This document shows, one piece after another, positions 17,565 through 43,574 of a stretch of 64,000 nucleotides of DNA. The translations under genes were made by a program, and so were the position numbers. Origin of the DNA: Barnesiella intestinihominis YIT 11860 (GTDB taxonomy: Bacteria > Bacteroidota > Bacteroidia > Bacteroidales > Barnesiellaceae); NCBI RefSeq assembly GCF_000296465.1, contig NZ_JH815205.1, positions 449,109 to 513,108 of the forward strand, written 5' to 3'. The first letter of the stretch is position 1, and each line of letters starts with the position of its first letter. The notes under the pieces are model-generated. The model was not told the DNA's origin and searched no databases. It saw only the letters and a list, made by a program, of their open reading frames with translations.

Positions 17565-17678
17565 ATATAACTTGATTTTGTATGTGTTATTCATTTATAC
17601 AAATGTCTTATGCTAACCGAAAAAATGCAGGCTGTCCTCAACTATATACCGAGACATAACCTTTCTTTACATCTTATG

Positions 17679-17710
17679 CAAAGATACAGGAAAAATGAAT
17701 GGAGTACAAA
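17679..17710 (-). promoter_or_regulatory. predicted purT promoter
   Basis: Minus-strand -33 TTTG (17710-17707), 20-bp spacer, then -7 TATCTTTG (17686-17679), an exact match to the Bacteroides consensus TTTG-N19/20-TAnnTTTG. It implies a 5' leader of roughly 110 nt before the purT ATG at 17564, in which no recognisable riboswitch was found. Confidence 0.65.
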
Positions 17711-22979: not shown

Positions 22980-23068
22980 ATCTTCTCATAAGCTTTGTGG
23001 GAAACACTATCATTTCTCATACAATCCTGACAATATTCCCCACATAGTAGCTCTTGTCCTTTTTCTTA

Positions 23069-23260
23069 GAAGTTGTTTTAAATTTATTCCGAGACAGATT
23101 GAGACCCATGTTGAAGCAGATTGGAGTCCGAGATATGCAGTCAATAGCGGGCTATTGACAAAAATCAAGGGATTCAAGATGCGACACAGGGGCTCAATAT
23201 GGCCGGAACATACCTGCTTGAAATGATAATATTATTTCTCAATAAATTTAAAACAGCTTC
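23069..23260. mobile_element. MITE-like element with 20-bp terminal inverted repeats
   Basis: A 192-bp non-coding element. The left end GAAGTTGTTTTAAATTTATT (23069-23088) and right end AATAAATTTAAAACAGCTTC (23241-23260) are inverted repeats matching at 19 of 20 positions. Both ends are flanked by TTA (23066-23068 and 23261-23263), a 3-bp target duplication of TNA type. Internally a 9-bp perfect palindrome GTCAATAGC-GG-GCTATTGAC lies at 23140-23159. No transposase is encoded. By known family behaviour, TNA duplications occur with some IS5-group elements (for example the IS1031 group); the parent element is unknown. Confidence 0.8.
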
Positions 23261-23965
23261 TTAATTCTTCAAATAATATACCACCGAGGTCACGACCCGC
23301 ACATGCTTCAAATAAGGAGTATTGGCATCCCTATCCTCGATAGAGAATTGTCCTTGATATGCCGATGATATTTTGCCCAATTTACTATCGGAGTCTTTGG
23401 CGAATTTTTCGGCGGCAACTCTCGCATTTTGAGTGGCTTCGGCAATCATCTCGGGTTTTAGTTCATTCAACTTGGTAAACAAGAACTGAGTGTTATACTG
23501 ATAATCCCCGGAAACGATAGCCACCCCCTTTTCCAACAAGGAGGCTTGCTTCACGATCAACTCTCGTACTTTCTCTACTTGATTCGAAGATACCGTTATT
23601 ACCGAAGTAACATTATAACGATACGGGACACTTTGGTTTCCATACCGTTCGGCCTGCATATCTACGATTCCGGGAGCCGCGATAGAAATTTCGGCGTCGG
23701 ATATCCCGTTAGCTTTCAGAAAATTTATCACGATTGTATTCTTAGTATTGATCGTACGGTAAATCGTGCCTAAATCATTCCCCAACTCCTTATATACCAA
23801 AGGCCAGATAACTTTATCGGCCGGGACCTCACGCTCTGACAAACCTTTTACCGAGACCGTACGCACAGCCTCCTTCGAACGAACGATACCTTGTTCGATT
23901 CGTTGCCCCAATAAAAACAAGCCTACTGCTATGATAATAGCCGGCACAATCCATTTGTTTTTCAT
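23261..23965 (-). CDS. SIMPL-domain (DUF541) membrane-anchored protein
   Basis: A 234-aa protein from the ATG at 23965 (MKNKWIVPAIIIAVGLFLLG); an upstream start at 24019 would add 18 residues with no family support. One N-terminal membrane anchor (about 5-20) is followed by a SIMPL/DUF541 domain: VSVKGLSEREVPADKVIW, then YNVTSVITVSS, NARVAAEKFAKDSDSKLGKI and a C-terminal VVTSVVYYL. The family is periplasmic or surface and of uncertain function, linked to stress and outer-membrane proteins in other bacteria. Its TAA stop codon coincides with one copy of the TTA target duplication of the adjacent MITE-like element. Confidence 0.82.
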   Translation of the reverse strand: MKNKWIVPAIIIAVGLFLLGQRIEQGIVRSKEAVRTVSVKGLSEREVPADKVIWPLVYKELGNDLGTIYRTINTKNTIVINFLKANGISDAEISIAAPGIVDMQAERYGNQSVPYRYNVTSVITVSSNQVEKVRELIVKQASLLEKGVAIVSGDYQYNTQFLFTKLNELKPEMIAEATQNARVAAEKFAKDSDSKLGKISSAYQGQFSIEDRDANTPYLKHVRVVTSVVYYLKN

Positions 23966-24932: not shown

Positions 24933-25663
24933 AATTCCAAAAAACTCACTTAAAGGAGATCGGCTCGACCAATACATATCTCCAAGAATCGGACAAAGAC
25001 AGACTTCTACCGGAAGGAACCATCGTTTACTGCGACATACAACGGTCTGGGCGCGGCCAACGTGGAAATTCATGGGAATCTGAGCCCTTCAAAAATTTAA
25101 CATTCAGCCTTTTACTCAGGCCAGAACATATCCCTGCCAATCGGCAATTCTTACTTTCTGAAATCGTATCGCTGGCAACTGTCGATGTTCTGAACCGATA
25201 CGCCACTGGATTCTCTATCAAATGGCCGAATGACATCTATTGGCACGACAAAAAAATTGCCGGTATTCTCATCGAAAATGTACTGAGCGGGAGTACATTC
25301 TCACGGGCTATTATCGGAATGGGGCTGAACATCAATCAGAAAAATTTTTACAGCGATGCTCCCAACCCGGTTTCATTATATCAAATAACAGGTCGCACCT
25401 ACAAGATAGAAAAAATATTAGACGAATTCACAGAGGCTTTCGGAAAGCGATATACAGACACATTTACAAACTCCTCCGACCGTATCCACAAAGAATATAT
25501 AGCGGCACTCTACCGAAACGACGGGGTATATCCGTTTTATAGCGACGGCAATATTTTCCACGCCTCTATTGCCGATGTCGAACTTGACGGTCATCTGCTT
25601 TTATCGACGGAATCGGGAGAGAAAAAACGCTTCGCTTTCAAAGAGGTTTCATTCCTGCTTTAA
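24914..25663 (+). CDS. birA: biotin--[acetyl-CoA-carboxylase] ligase
   Basis: A 249-aa biotin protein ligase that activates biotin with ATP and attaches it to carboxylase carrier proteins. Motifs: GSTNTYLQE, the biotinyl-AMP loop SGRGQRGNSWES, FKNLTFSLLLRP, IKWPNDIYWHDKKIAGIL with the catalytic lysine region, and GMGLNINQ. The short C-terminal SH3-like domain is present. There is no N-terminal helix-turn-helix, so it is the monofunctional class and not a repressor. It overlaps yjbR by 19 bp at the start and the TPR gene by 15 bp at the convergent end. Confidence 0.95.
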   Translation: METKEIKFQKTHLKEIGSTNTYLQESDKDRLLPEGTIVYCDIQRSGRGQRGNSWESEPFKNLTFSLLLRPEHIPANRQFLLSEIVSLATVDVLNRYATGFSIKWPNDIYWHDKKIAGILIENVLSGSTFSRAIIGMGLNINQKNFYSDAPNPVSLYQITGRTYKIEKILDEFTEAFGKRYTDTFTNSSDRIHKEYIAALYRNDGVYPFYSDGNIFHASIADVELDGHLLLSTESGEKKRFAFKEVSFLL

Positions 25664-26542
25664 ACGTTTCAAGAACGGACGAATAACCCCGCTGCTTTGA
25701 GGCAACTCATCGGAAAGTCCCGACAGCATGGAAAGTTGTTCCAAAAGATATTTATTGCTACGAACCCGTGCAGCAATCGTAAAATATTTTTTAGCACAAG
25801 CTATATCGCCGTTGATCACTTGCCTTTTTTCCTCTTTATATACGGAAGCAGAGATAGAAAGACCGTTCGAATCTTCAAGATACTGTTGATCTATCGATTT
25901 CAGTTTTTCCTGTCCCTTTATAGCATAATAGCTTCCCAAAAACAAGTTTGCATCAAAATTAAGAGAGTCTATATCCAAAATAGTTTTCTGAACCTCGACC
26001 GCTGCAGTATCGTTTCCAAGTAACAACAAAGCATCGGCTTTGGCTTTCAAATAATTAATTTGCCCGGGCATCACCGACAACAATTCGTCAGCAACGGCAA
26101 GTATCTTTTCAGCATCATGCCGAAACACATAATACCCCAATAAATAATTATTCGTCACCCGAGTAAACCACGGCTGTTGTTCTTTCACCAACAAAAGTAC
26201 CTGTTCATAAATGCCCGACTGTCCGATAGATCGCGACAACACGTCTATGCCGGTAAACAACGAATCCAAAGATAGTCCTTGCATTTCCGAACGAACCACA
26301 TATTGCATAATAGACGAAGAATCGTTCATCATGGCCGATGCGACAACCGCATCCACATACGTTTTCACCCTACCGGGACGGCGTTCCAACAATACGTCAT
26401 ACATAGTAACAGCCTCTTGCCACTCCTTATTGGCAAAGTGATCATCGGCTTTTCTCAACACAGTACGATACGGCATCTCGGCAAAAGCCGAAAAAGCGAT
26501 ACTACAAAAAAGGAAAAATCCTATTATCCGTCTTATATACAT
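25649..26542 (-). CDS. secreted tetratricopeptide-repeat protein
   Basis: A 297-aa protein with a signal peptide (about 1-21, IAFSAFAEM), so periplasmic or exported. Helical TPR-like repeats are visible: ADDHFANKEWQEAVTMYDVLLERRPG (about 32-57), an AEKILAVADELLSVMPGQINYLKAKADALLLLG pair (about 155-190) and VQKTILDIDSLNFDANLFLGSYYAIKG (about 195-225). The C-terminus is conserved-looking but unassigned. Function unknown; TPR proteins act as assembly platforms. Its promoter is one of the 87-bp hairpin/promoter modules described below. Confidence 0.8.
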   Translation of the reverse strand: MYIRRIIGFFLFCSIAFSAFAEMPYRTVLRKADDHFANKEWQEAVTMYDVLLERRPGRVKTYVDAVVASAMMNDSSSIMQYVVRSEMQGLSLDSLFTGIDVLSRSIGQSGIYEQVLLLVKEQQPWFTRVTNNYLLGYYVFRHDAEKILAVADELLSVMPGQINYLKAKADALLLLGNDTAAVEVQKTILDIDSLNFDANLFLGSYYAIKGQEKLKSIDQQYLEDSNGLSISASVYKEEKRQVINGDIACAKKYFTIAARVRSNKYLLEQLSMLSGLSDELPQSSGVIRPFLKRLKQE

Positions 26543-26567: not shown

Positions 26568-26662
26568 CAAAGATAGCGAAAGGTGAGTGCAGAGACAAAC
26601 GGAAATTTTATTTCCGATTTGACTATGCCGAACCGCATCCTATTTTCGTACTTACAAAGATA
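26568..26662 (-). repeat. 87-bp hairpin-promoter module upstream of the TPR gene
   Basis: Read on the minus strand, TATCTTTG (26662-26655) is followed exactly 87 bp later by a second TATCTTTG (26575-26568). Between them lie GGATGCGGTTCGGCATAG, a palindrome CGGAAAT-AAA-ATTTCCG and, abutting it, TTTG (26599-26596), which is 20 bp from the second box. The downstream box lies 25 bp before the ATG of the TPR gene. By hand alignment it matches the rsgA copy at 79 of 87 positions. Confidence 0.85.
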
Positions 26663-26945: not shown

Positions 26946-28790
26946 ATGAAAAAACTTTACTCAAAACTATTGACGTTAGTCACTATCGGTTTTTACAGTC
27001 TATCTGTCTGGGCACAAGATGCTCCCGTCATTCAGAATTACAGCGACTATACCGGAGACTCATTCGTAGCCAACTGGGACAAAGTATCGGGAGCAGACAA
27101 GTATTTCCTCAATGTCTACACGAACGGGACCAACGTTCAAAACGTAAATGAAACCTTTGGCAACATCAACCATTCCGATGGGAAAATAGACCAGCAATCG
27201 CCCAATTACCCGAATGGCTGGGAGATAAACGTGAGTGAAAACGGCAGTACCGATATGGTCGTCTACGAAGGTGTAAATAAAATTATCCTCGATGCGACAG
27301 ACGACTACATAAGCACCGAACAAATTATCGGAACCGGCGTGGGGAAATATATCGTTAACGCCAACCTCATCAATGCAGAAAATATCACCCAAGAAAATTC
27401 AAGCTTATTCAAGATTGAAATATTCGACAAAGCAGGTATACTTCTTAGCACCGGAACAATCGAAACTTTACTTTTTGCCCAAATAACCGAATTCAATATT
27501 TTCGACGGCTTCGGATACACACAAGCAAACATCGGGCGCATAAAAATATCTATCGAAAAAGGTGACGGAAAAATTGGAGACCTCATGATAAACTCTATCT
27601 CTTACTCTTGTACCGAGCCTTCGTATATTCTGAAAGATCAAGCAACGGCCGAAAATTCTTATCCTGTAACCAACCTCGACCCGGAAAAGGAATATTACTA
27701 CTACGTCGCTGCTTCGGTGGAAGGAAAAACGACAGACGCATCGAACATCATCAGAGTAAATGAATTCCTCACTCCCAAAGCCTTAGACGCAACCGGCACA
27801 TCGGAAAACTCGTTCACGGCAAATTGGGAAAGACTGCCCAAAGCAAAAGGATACATCGTGCAAGCGTACCAATATCACACCGCAACACAAGACAGTGAGA
27901 AGAAAATACTCGACGATTCTTTCGAAAAATCGACAGAGGGTACTATGGACGATCCGATCTCTGTTACCGACCCGGACTTATACACCGCAGTTCCGGGTTG
28001 GAGCGGGAAAAACATACTGGCAGCCAACGGTATGCTCGGAGCCGACAACGGAAGATTTCCCGTAAGCCTCTCTTATTTATGGACTCCCACAATGAACCTG
28101 TCATCGAATAACGGTAAATACAAAATCCACATCAAAGCCCGTGGAACAGCCGGAGATTATCTGTCGATTTATCGAATAGGTTATATGATAGACAGCAACG
28201 GAGACGGAGAACCCGATGCCCTTAACATACATAAAGTAACAGCTTTCGACGAAAACGGATACGCCGAAGAAACTTGGGAAATGGAAGACGGTGCTGAAAA
28301 CATGCAACTCTCCATCGAAGAAAACAAACTAAAAAGATTTTTCATCGACGAAATCACCATCATACAAGAAAGCAAGGCCGGAGAGGTTACGAGAATACCT
28401 CTCGTTCCGGCAACCATTTCGGACGGTTCTCAAACGTCTTATACTTTCACAGATCTCGAAACGAATGGAAACTACGGCTACGAAGTGACCGGTATGCGTT
28501 ACAACGACTATGAGGAAGAAGAATATTCCGAAACGTCTAACCTTATTACCGTGCAGTTAATACATTCGGGAATAGAAAGTAGCACAACTCAAAACGTAAA
28601 AGTAATCGCTTCTGAAAACTCAATCAACATAGTTCTATCGGAAAGGGCACTCATACAAATATTTACTGCCAACGGACAACTTGTAAAAACCATAAATGGA
28701 ACCTCGGGAGAAAATATCGTTTCTATCCCTGCTGCCAATATTTATATCGTAAAAGTCGGAAGCAAGATATTTAAAGTCATCGCCCGATAA
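26946..28790 (+). CDS. secreted fibronectin type III-like protein with T9SS sorting domain
   Basis: A 614-aa protein with signal peptide (about 1-23, SLSVWAQD). Two fibronectin-III-like modules begin near residue 27 (DSFVANWDKVSGADKYFLNVY) and 285 (NSFTANWERLPKAKGYIVQAY). Each is followed by a jelly-roll-like insert of about 130-150 aa that may be carbohydrate-binding. The end (about 545-614) is a T9SS type-A sorting domain (ALIQIFTANGQLVKTINGTSG, VSIPAANIYIVKVGSKIFKVI). Stand-alone, with its own terminator and no enzymes nearby, so the ligand is unknown. Probably surface-displayed; adhesion is an inference only. Confidence 0.75.
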   Translation: MKKLYSKLLTLVTIGFYSLSVWAQDAPVIQNYSDYTGDSFVANWDKVSGADKYFLNVYTNGTNVQNVNETFGNINHSDGKIDQQSPNYPNGWEINVSENGSTDMVVYEGVNKIILDATDDYISTEQIIGTGVGKYIVNANLINAENITQENSSLFKIEIFDKAGILLSTGTIETLLFAQITEFNIFDGFGYTQANIGRIKISIEKGDGKIGDLMINSISYSCTEPSYILKDQATAENSYPVTNLDPEKEYYYYVAASVEGKTTDASNIIRVNEFLTPKALDATGTSENSFTANWERLPKAKGYIVQAYQYHTATQDSEKKILDDSFEKSTEGTMDDPISVTDPDLYTAVPGWSGKNILAANGMLGADNGRFPVSLSYLWTPTMNLSSNNGKYKIHIKARGTAGDYLSIYRIGYMIDSNGDGEPDALNIHKVTAFDENGYAEETWEMEDGAENMQLSIEENKLKRFFIDEITIIQESKAGEVTRIPLVPATISDGSQTSYTFTDLETNGNYGYEVTGMRYNDYEEEEYSETSNLITVQLIHSGIESSTTQNVKVIASENSINIVLSERALIQIFTANGQLVKTINGTSGENIVSIPAANIYIVKVGSKIFKVIAR

Positions 28791-30394: not shown

Positions 30395-30520
30395 TCAAAA
30401 GTTTCTACTGTTTCTAAGGTTCAGTAGAAAATCCGTGGGGTAAGCATGAATTTTAACGATAAATCTCTCGTCGGCACACACATTCCGGTCTCTTCGGAGA
30501 GAGGTTGGAAAAGATAGCAT
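30395..30520 (-). other. 41-codon open frame in a probable dispersed repeat
   Basis: The minus strand from the ATG at 30518-30520 to a TGA at 30395-30397 encodes 41 residues, including RRDRNVCADERF and KIHAYPTDFLLNLRN. I recall near-identical short hypothetical proteins from many Bacteroidales genomes; this is unverified memory. The DNA also contains a perfect 9-bp inverted repeat (TTTCTACTG 30402-30410, CAGTAGAAA 30422-30430) and a TCTC-TTCG-GAGA tetraloop hairpin near 30490-30505, so it may be a conserved non-coding repeat that happens to be open. No function is assigned. Confidence 0.45.
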
Positions 30521-30545
30521 AGGAGTTTTTGATTGTAAGGCTTAA

Positions 30546-30632
30546 CCCCTCCGTCACTACGTGACACCTCCCCTATATTTTGCGCTGCAAAACGCCCCGT
30601 AAGGTTACGGGACACGGCAGGGGGAGAGAGCC
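30546..30632. repeat. compound palindromic element between frr and rsgA
   Basis: Three palindromes lie in a row: GTCAC-TAC-GTGAC (30553-30565), TTTTGC-GCT-GCAAAA (30578-30592) and CCCGTAA-GG-TTACGGG (30596-30611). They are bracketed by C-rich AACCCCTCCG and G-rich CAGGGGGAGAG ends. This looks like an intergenic repetitive element capable of folding into a multi-stem structure. No protein is encoded. Confidence 0.6.
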
Positions 30633-30688: not shown

Positions 30689-31027
30689 TATATTTGTAGA
30701 ATATCGGAGGCGGTTCGGCATAGTCAAGCCGAAAATGTAATTTTCGCTTGCCTCTGCGCTCACCTTTCGCTATATTTGTGGAATGTAAGAGTGGAGTGGC
30801 ATAGCTGGAAATATGATTTCCTCTTGCCTCTGCATTTCACTTTCACTATCTTTGAGTTGAAACTCGAAAATACTTCTGCTCGGCAGAATAAAATTAAAGC
30901 AAGCTTTGTTTTGCTCAGCTCTCGCTTATACGTATCTTTGTCACTACGAAGATAGGATGCGGTTCGACATAGCCAAATCGGAAATGAAATTTCCGTTTGT
31001 CTCTGCTCTCACCTTTTGCTATCTTTG
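30689..31027 (+). repeat. tandem array of four hairpin-promoter modules upstream of rsgA
   Basis: Five TAnnTTTG boxes are spaced regularly: TATATTTG 30689-30696 and 30771-30778, then TATCTTTG 30847-30854, 30933-30940 and 31020-31027 (periods 82, 76, 86 and 87 bp). Units 1, 2 and 4 carry a palindrome next to the -33 element (CGAAAATGTAATTTTCG; GGAAATATGATTTCC; CGGAAAT-GAA-ATTTCCG), while unit 3 is diverged. Each unit has TTTG or CTTG 19-20 bp before its closing box. The last unit (TTTG 30996-30999, N20, TATCTTTG) lies 18 bp before the rsgA ATG. See the corresponding finding. Confidence 0.85.
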
Positions 31028-36945: not shown

Positions 36946-37028
36946 TATCTTTGCATAAAGCAAAAAATGAAATGAGCCTCGGTATATCCGAGTGAACTTG
37001 TTTCGATTCACGTCTTACCCTATCTTTG
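36946..37028 (+). repeat. diverged hairpin-promoter module upstream of surE
   Basis: Two TATCTTTG boxes (36946-36953 and 37021-37028) lie 75 bp apart. Between them are the palindrome CTCGG-TATAT-CCGAG (36978-36992) and CTTG (36997-37000), 20 bp before the second box. The architecture matches the 87-bp module upstream of ssb, rsgA and the TPR gene, although the sequence is different. The second box lies 27 bp before the surE ATG. Confidence 0.65.
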
Positions 37029-43456: not shown

Positions 43457-43487
43457 CTTGTTCTATGCGTAACTTTCACTATCTTTG
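43457..43487 (+). promoter_or_regulatory. distal ssb promoter
   Basis: CTTG (43457-43460), 19-bp spacer, TATCTTTG (43480-43487). It lies directly upstream of the 87-bp module that carries the proximal promoter, so ssb appears to have tandem promoters. Confidence 0.55.
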
Positions 43488-43574
43488 ACGCTACGAAGAT
43501 ACGATGCGATTCGGCATAGCCAAGCCGGAAACAAGATTTCCGTTTGCTTCTGCTCTCATCTTTCACTATCTTTG
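43480..43574 (+). repeat. 87-bp hairpin-promoter module upstream of ssb
   Basis: Bounded by TATCTTTG at 43480-43487 and 43567-43574, exactly 87 bp apart. It contains GATGCGATTCGGCATAGCCA, the palindrome CGGAAA-CAAGA-TTTCCG (43526-43542) and the abutting -33 TTTG (43543-43546), 20 bp before the closing -7 box. By hand alignment it matches the rsgA unit at 72 of 87 positions. The -7 box ends 29 bp before the ssb ATG. Confidence 0.85.

What the first reader, a model, noticed from the sequence alone, without database searches (positions are those of the whole stretch)
26568..26662. Second, nearly identical 87-bp module in reverse orientation driving the TPR gene
On the minus strand two TATCTTTG boxes are exactly 87 bp apart, with a palindrome CGGAAAT-AAA-ATTTCCG and TTTG-N20-TATCTTTG between them. 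It matches the rsgA unit at 79 of 87 positions by hand alignment, though the two loci are 4 kb apart and unrelated. The -7 box at both borders means either a target-site duplication of a -7 box or a tandem duplication event; insertion into an existing promoter would regenerate it.
Basis: partly seen in the sequence, partly recalled or inferred. Interest (0 to 1): 0.75.

Follow-up and report, generated by a model that had tools for sequence, protein, structure and literature searches.

The report
Hairpin promoter cassettes inserted into promoters
A gut Barnesiella-type genome carries dozens of copies of a short DNA hairpin with a complete built-in promoter; copies sit at the core box of existing promoters, nearly always pointing at the gene, so genes appear to be rewired by a small mobile promoter of a kind we did not find described.

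Summary
It is one of at least 65 copies in a 3.44-Mb Barnesiella-type genome. The family is genus-wide and frequent in four other families. Each unit is an end-to-end imperfect hairpin with compensatory changes that carries a full sigma-ABfr-type promoter: TTG-N19/20-box in 58 of 63 units. In 34 of 42 arrays an ORF follows in the same direction, median 34.5 nt after the last box. Twelve other promoters show the same filled/empty contrast, some with strongly conserved flanks. At this gene itself the left flank is too diverged to prove the junction. Array neighbours are rarely nearest relatives (1 of 20), so stacking is mainly serial insertion, not tandem duplication. The mobilising enzyme is unknown: Y1, IS110 and integron-integrase families are not genus-wide. 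It works like a mobile promoter, but no known element family fits.

The parts
26655..26662 (-). left TATCTTTG box (upstream -7 box; presumed insertion target)
   Evidence: single box at this place in 7 of 8 congeners
26640..26648 (-). 5' arm CGAAAATAG of the end-to-end hairpin; inverted near-copy of the -7 box
   Evidence: the arm covaries with both boxes across copies
26600..26616 (-). core hairpin CGGAAAT-AAA-ATTTCCG
   Evidence: DNA and RNA folds z -3.2 and -3.3 for 26568-26650
26596..26599 (-). -33 box TTTG of the carried promoter
   Evidence: TTG-N19/20-box in 58 of 63 own units
26568..26575 (-). right TATCTTTG box (-7 box of the carried promoter, 3' strand of the hairpin)
25649..26542 (-). 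297-aa gene whose start codon lies 25 nt after the right box (no Pfam family)
30933..31027 (+). closest window copy (87/95), last unit of the array before rsgA
   Evidence: rsgA named by Pfam
30690..30854 (+). two further units of the rsgA array
30847..30940 (+). more diverged unit of the rsgA array (ends CTCGCTTATACGTATCTTTG)
   Evidence: (E 0.12 with the narrow profile)
43480..43574 (+). copy before ssb (78/95)
36946..37028 (+). diverged 75-bp-period unit before surE; 5 of 5 relatives examined have one box and no unit
   Evidence: conspecific copy found by the broad profile, E 1.7e-4

Best explanation
It is a copy of a non-coding mobile promoter cassette (mostly 75-95 bp) that inserts at the -7 box (TAnnTTTG) of existing Bacteroidota promoters. 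SHOWN: the unit runs box to box; it is repeated at many unrelated promoters; it carries the sequence of a complete sigma-ABfr-type promoter; its sense strand can fold end to end into a conserved, covarying hairpin; orthologous promoters in sister species have one box and no unit; and units stack mainly by separate insertions. INFERRED: insertion leaves a box on each side, so the old start region is displaced upstream and the cassette's own -33/-7 pair takes over close to the gene. Because the box is a directional target, the cassette points at the gene. The new right-hand box can be hit again, which builds arrays. The old left box then decays. UNKNOWN: the enzyme. Box-arm covariation suggests that target choice depends on the element's own box/arm sequence.
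For: Filled/empty contrast at 13 promoters. On at least one side 11 of 13 loci reach >= 21/30 identity with at least one relative, against a control mean of 15.9 and 99th percentile of 21; best cases are the MNTDNV gene (left 26 and 28/30, right 22/30), METATF (left 25/30), MKAKDM (right 29/30) and surE (left 21-23/30 in 5 of 5). Codirectional ORF after 34 of 42 arrays, median 34.5 nt. TTG-N19/20-box in 58 of 63 units. Hairpin: 22 cells with both-side changes vs 7.2 in shuffles, 95.9% of cells paired vs 41-57% when slid. Association of box 1, arm and box 2: p 5e-8, 4e-7, 3e-8 in own copies. Array neighbours 0.68-0.92 identical vs 0.815 mean for non-adjacent pairs. Old left box degenerate while the right box is intact before the MKNQW and MKAKDM genes.
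Against: No mobiliser found. No polymorphism inside the species: in 6 conspecific scaffolds with long matches no indel >= 15 bp falls within the alignments and the units lie in the matched stretches, so movement is not recent there. A precise deletion between two boxes would also leave a clean 'empty' site, so polarity at single loci rests on parsimony on a weakly supported tree. At the finding's own gene the left flank is at control level for 3 of 5 relatives. At rsgA, surE, rpiB-like and (3 of 4 relatives) folB-like loci the right box differs from the relatives' box, so 'the target box is simply duplicated' does not hold everywhere. Promoter activity is read from sequence only. Before the METATF gene of G004 the left box is kept and the right one is decayed, against the usual pattern.
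Confidence: 0.77

Rival explanations
1. Microhomology template switching: no dedicated enzyme; replication or repair switches templates between identical 8-9 bp -7 boxes, copies a box-to-box segment into another promoter, and selection keeps good promoters.
For: Units begin and end at the same 8-9 bp word that every target promoter already has; the two boxes of a unit agree in type; no mobiliser family found genus-wide.
Against: Predicts copying of any promoter segment between boxes, but the inserted segments seen are members of one hairpin superfamily with covarying pairs; dozens of copies need a high rate.
Confidence: 0.25
2. Ordinary MITE: moved in trans by a DDE transposase, with an 8-9 bp target-site duplication that happens to be the -7 box.
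For: Short, non-coding, intergenic, many copies, duplicated 8-9 bp word at both ends. The same genome does carry a classical-looking MITE.
Against: If the box is the duplication, the remaining ends (TAAGTACG.../...CACCTTTCGC) are not inverted repeats; the inverted ends are the arm, 3-9 nt inside the left box, and the right box itself. A duplication of the target would not covary with the internal arm.
Confidence: 0.15
3. Not mobile: a conserved regulatory RNA or attenuator plus promoter, inherited vertically and often lost.
For: Sense-strand hairpin with G-U pairs; no difference within the species.
Against: Same unit before unrelated genes; different units before the same orthologous gene in sister species (MVEIG gene, ssb, MDHTASS gene); stacking of dissimilar units; no Rfam family in the window.
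Confidence: 0.06
4. Tandem duplication of a promoter segment at each place.
For: Exact 87-bp period in some arrays; one array with near-identical neighbours (C1:852910).
Against: Only 1 of 20 array units has its neighbour as nearest relative; 24 of 42 arrays have a single detected unit.
Confidence: 0.03

Closest known systems
Correia repeat enclosed elements (CREE) of Neisseria (PMC2649163, abstract and passages seen)
   Same: Short non-coding repeats, many before genes, hairpin-forming, able to supply promoter parts, mobiliser not determined.
   Different: The paper describes a -35 and a partial -10 at one end that some insertion sites complete, or a -10 at the other end with a native -35. 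Here a whole -33/-7 pair lies inside, the insertion point is the promoter's own -7 box, and orientation follows the promoter.
BrickBuilt MITE of Porphyromonas gingivalis (PMC4596501, abstract and passages seen)
   Same: Bacteroidota, intergenic, non-autonomous, promoter activity measured in E. coli, filled and empty sites between strains.
   Different: IS5-family-like terminal inverted repeats, variable target duplications, minisatellite interior, promoters in both directions; none of these seen here.
REP/REPIN with RAYT (PMC3733652 and PMC8049555, search listings only)
   Same: High-copy palindromic extragenic repeats.
   Different: No conserved GTAG/CGTC tag at the hairpin foot; Y1 transposase family in only 1 of 9 genus genomes.
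Integron attC sites (recalled)
   Same: Inverted ends around an imperfect palindrome, array growth at a short core site.
   Different: No gene cargo; an integron integrase over its cut-off in none of 9 genomes; the core is a promoter box.
sigma-ABfr promoter of Bacteroides (PMC7366714, passages and one section; PMC12632263, passages)
   Same: TTTG at -33 and TAnnTTTG at -7, as carried by the unit.
   Different: The passages seen describe the promoter motif, not a repeated or mobile unit.

Membership tests
Primary sigma (ABfr-type) promoter | TTG/TTTG about 19-21 nt before TAnnTTTG | tested here: met
   58 of 63 own units have TTG-N19/20-box; motif definition seen in PMC7366714 passages, spacing recalled
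Primary sigma (ABfr-type) promoter | Transcription starts just after the box | not testable with these tools
   no RNA data held
MITE | Short, non-coding, intergenic, multi-copy | tested here: met
   3 of 42 arrays overlap an ORF >= 120 aa
MITE | Terminal inverted repeats flanked by a target-site duplication | tested here: inconclusive
   inverted ends (arm / right box) and a duplicated box exist, but they do not nest in the usual way: the right inverted end is itself the repeated box
MITE | Parent transposase with the same ends | not tested
   no search for an autonomous copy was made beyond the families
REPIN/RAYT | Y1 (RAYT) transposase in carrier genomes | tested here: not met
   PF01797 in 1 of 9 genus genomes, while 9 of 9 carry the units
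REPIN/RAYT | Conserved GTAG or CGTC tag at the palindrome foot | tested here: not met
   bases between box and arm vary (TAAG, TCAC, ACGC, TTACA, GAT, TAG and others) in alignment A2
Integron cassette/attC | Integron integrase in carrier genomes | tested here: not met
   TIGR02249: 0 of 9 over cut-off
IS110-type (bridge RNA) element | DEDD transposase in carrier genomes | tested here: not met
   PF01548: 0 of 9 over cut-off; 6 of 9 have weak hits in ORFs of about 1400 aa
CREE | Correia repeat ends (CCGGTACGG seen) and Neisseria host | tested here: not met
   ends are CGAAGATAG/CTATCTTTG, host Barnesiella-type

The most novel reading that the evidence does not exclude
A promoter-targeting recombination system: a gene-less hairpin cassette, folded as a single strand, is recombined by a host recombinase into double-stranded DNA at an 8-bp core that IS the sigma-factor -7 box. 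The cassette's own arm and box decide which boxes (TATC- or TATA-type) it enters, and promoter melting by RNA polymerase exposes the target. Barnesiella promoters would then be assembled by serial cassette insertion, as integrons assemble genes.
Probability: 0.12. Interest if true: 0.88.

Novelty: new variant of a known kind. Interest (0 to 1): 0.64.

Why it matters
Small elements that supply promoters are known, but one whose insertion site is the promoter core box itself, that carries a full promoter, follows the promoter's direction and stacks in arrays would be a direct route for rewiring gene expression in common gut bacteria. At least 65 copies per genome in two Barnesiella-type species and replacement at housekeeping genes such as rsgA, ssb and surE mean that promoter comparisons in this group must reckon with it. 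It also makes the question of how bacterial promoters turn over testable with natural filled/empty pairs.

Tried and rejected
Tandem duplication as the main process: rejected. Known RNA family: none in the window at Rfam gathering score. Y1/RAYT, IS110 and integron integrase as genus-wide mobilisers: rejected at the level of family searches. Phage carriage: the pattern CTCNCCTTTCRCTATMTTTG is absent from viral contigs; of the 11 'phage' hits, the 10 records opened are described as UNVERIFIED fecal scaffolds, and 6 of these match the own-genome pieces at 97.7-99.2% over long stretches, so they were used as conspecific chromosome pieces. Restriction to Barnesiella: false, families f22, f29, f69, f89 carry many. 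That box 1 is always the old target box, or always the new one: not settled; loci point both ways. I dropped 3 of 16 contrast loci (15 plus surE): MFDSIK (57% identity, maybe a paralogue), MFLTTYP (short remnant), and ssb, because the relatives without a detected unit carry what look like remnants. In the covariation counts only 70 of 144 units had both boxes and an arm readable by the script.

Print: searches listed no paper that by title or abstract start describes this repeat; that is all that 'not described' rests on. One further paper tried by its DOI was not held.

Full report
Observation. The unit at 26568-26662 (-) is identical to the rsgA unit at 87 of 95 positions including both boxes, i.e. 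79 of 87, and to a third window unit before ssb at 78 of 95.

Copy number and range. In the own genome (3.44 Mb, 5 contigs) blastn found 53 matches with only 40 of 75 candidates scored; the 3'-end pattern CTCNCCTTTCNCTATCTTTG (<= 1 mismatch) has 65 matches, with 0 for the reversed control. All 9 genomes of the genus carry the unit (25-35 matches each at capped scoring), as do G029 (19) and G036 (21); G025 has one weak match; 29 of 41 genomes have none. In 149 genomes of the order the pattern occurs in 12; counts of 5 or more are confined to families f1, f22, f29, f69 and f89. One 78% copy with both boxes sits on a Phocaeicola massiliensis plasmid.

Anatomy. From left to right: box, 3-9 or so variable bases, arm (C)GAAGATAGG, a conserved half ending CGGYTCGGCA, a variable core hairpin, TGCNCTCNCCTTTCNC, box. 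RNAalifold, given no structure, pairs the arm with the right box and adds three inner helices; 6 of 18 pairs have a change on both sides, chiefly columns 23-100 (G-C to U-A in 8 of 32) and 35-88 (U-A to C-G in 8 of 32). With that structure 95.9% of cells pair (41-57% when slid) and 22 cells have changes on both sides (7.2 in shuffles); the structure was derived from these sequences, which favours it against slides. The alternative pairing of the arm with the left box scores equally well. Single copies fold better than shuffles: z -3.2, -2.9, -2.1 as DNA and -3.3, -3.9, -2.1 as RNA for the three window copies. G-U pairs lie on the sense strand, which hints, no more, that the sense strand is the folded one. 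The arm, left box and right box change together (TATC-type with G or A in the arm, TATA-type with T): Fisher p 5e-8, 4e-7 and 3e-8 in own copies, 4e-4, 4e-4 and 8e-5 in others; 70 of 144 units were readable and copies share ancestry, so these p-values are optimistic.

Promoter and position. TTG lies 19 or 20 nt before the right box in 58 of 63 own units. Units form 42 arrays (24 with one detected unit, 15 with two, 3 with three); 34 of 42 are followed by a codirectional ORF of at least 120 aa within 250 nt, median 34.5 nt after the last box; 15 of 42 have a divergent ORF on the other side; 3 of 42 overlap an ORF.

Empty sites. Before the orthologous 297-aa gene, 7 of 8 congeners have one TATCTTTG or TATATTTG and no unit, and G008 has another unit at a contig edge. 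The flank test at this gene is weak: left 14-18/30 against 14-17 for the wrong box, right 17-21/30; at 45 nt the left flank beats all but 1.2% and 3.5% of controls in 2 of 5 relatives and is ordinary in 3. The own genome also has about 3 kb of extra sequence between this gene and the kinase gene upstream. The case therefore rests on this locus plus twelve others. Before the MNTDNV gene, G004 has an 89-bp insertion at the box with left flank 26 and 28 of 30 and right flank 22 of 30 identical to the empty G001 and G005 sites; before surE the own genome has a 75-bp-period unit where 5 of 5 relatives have one box, left flank 21-23/30, right 18-21/30. METATF (left 25/30), MKAKDM (right 29/30), MKNQW (right 22-25/30), folB-like (right 18-26/30), galE-like, rpiB-like and rsgA (right 19-22/30) and MKLNK (23 left and 21 right with G001) agree; MVEIG and MDHTASS reach 20/30. 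Control pairs of boxes average 15.9, with a 99th percentile of 21. Gene names other than rsgA, ssb, surE and the amino-acid-kinase-family gene are recalled or are given by the first residues.

Polarity. A deletion between boxes would also give a clean single box. On a two-protein tree (support 33-94%) G001, G003, G004, G005 and G008 group together; units present in only one of them while the sisters examined and G007 lack them (MKNQW, folB-like, rpiB-like) are most simply gains. Different units before the same gene in different species (MVEIG, ssb, MDHTASS) also speak for repeated gains. Within the species no difference was seen in 6 matching scaffolds, so current activity is not shown.

Stacking. 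Adjacent units are 68-92% identical (10 pairs), non-adjacent pairs average 81.5%, and only 1 of 20 array units has its neighbour as nearest relative (52 of 63 units used, weak and N-bearing ones left out). Arrays therefore grow mainly by new insertions at a box.

Mechanism. The conserved facts are a box at each end, an orientation that follows the promoter, and a hairpin containing one box. Which box is old differs between loci: the right box resembles the relatives' box before the MNTDNV, MKLNK and MDHTASS genes, but not before rsgA, surE or the rpiB-like gene. A conventional transposase with a box-long target duplication does not explain the box-arm covariation. Families that use hairpins or guides are not genus-wide: Y1 in 1 of 9, integron integrase over cut-off in 0 of 9, IS110 over cut-off in 0 of 9. 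I leave the mobiliser open and rank a dedicated but unknown recombinase above template switching, without proof.

Comparison. CREE are the nearest functional analogue; BrickBuilt is the nearest promoter-bearing MITE in the phylum. Neither shares the target rule. The unit works like a mobile promoter; membership in MITE, REPIN, CREE or attC families is not claimed.

Noticed in passing
window 23050-23266 (-); L139:4280-4482: A separate, conventional-looking MITE of about 200 bp with long inverted ends (AAGAAGCTGTTTTAAATTTATT / AATAAATTTAAAACAGCTTCTT), about 30 copies in the genome; one copy lacks about 85 bp in a conspecific scaffold.
   Followed up: partly
window 30488-30592: Another repeat family, found with the 3' part of L133, many partial copies across the genome, next to the rsgA array.
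   Followed up: no
window 26946-28790 (+): A 614-aa ORF with a weak fn3 match lies between the 297-aa gene and the amino-acid-kinase-family gene; the relatives compared lack this stretch.
   Followed up: partly
L137:5001-5095 (OY726013.1): A full unit with both boxes and a partial second arm on a 46-kb Phocaeicola massiliensis plasmid, the only plasmid record with a match.
   Followed up: partly
L199-L201: The IS110 profile hits about 1400-aa ORFs in 6 of 9 genomes below cut-off; size and RuvC-like match suggest Cas9 (recalled, not tested).
   Followed up: no
L101: A single Y1 transposase in the own genome, with no match in the 8 congeners.
   Followed up: no
window 17594-17690 (-): The MVEIG gene promoter carries what looks like a decayed unit in the own genome and different units in three relatives, while G007 has none: a repeated insertion spot.
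   Followed up: partly
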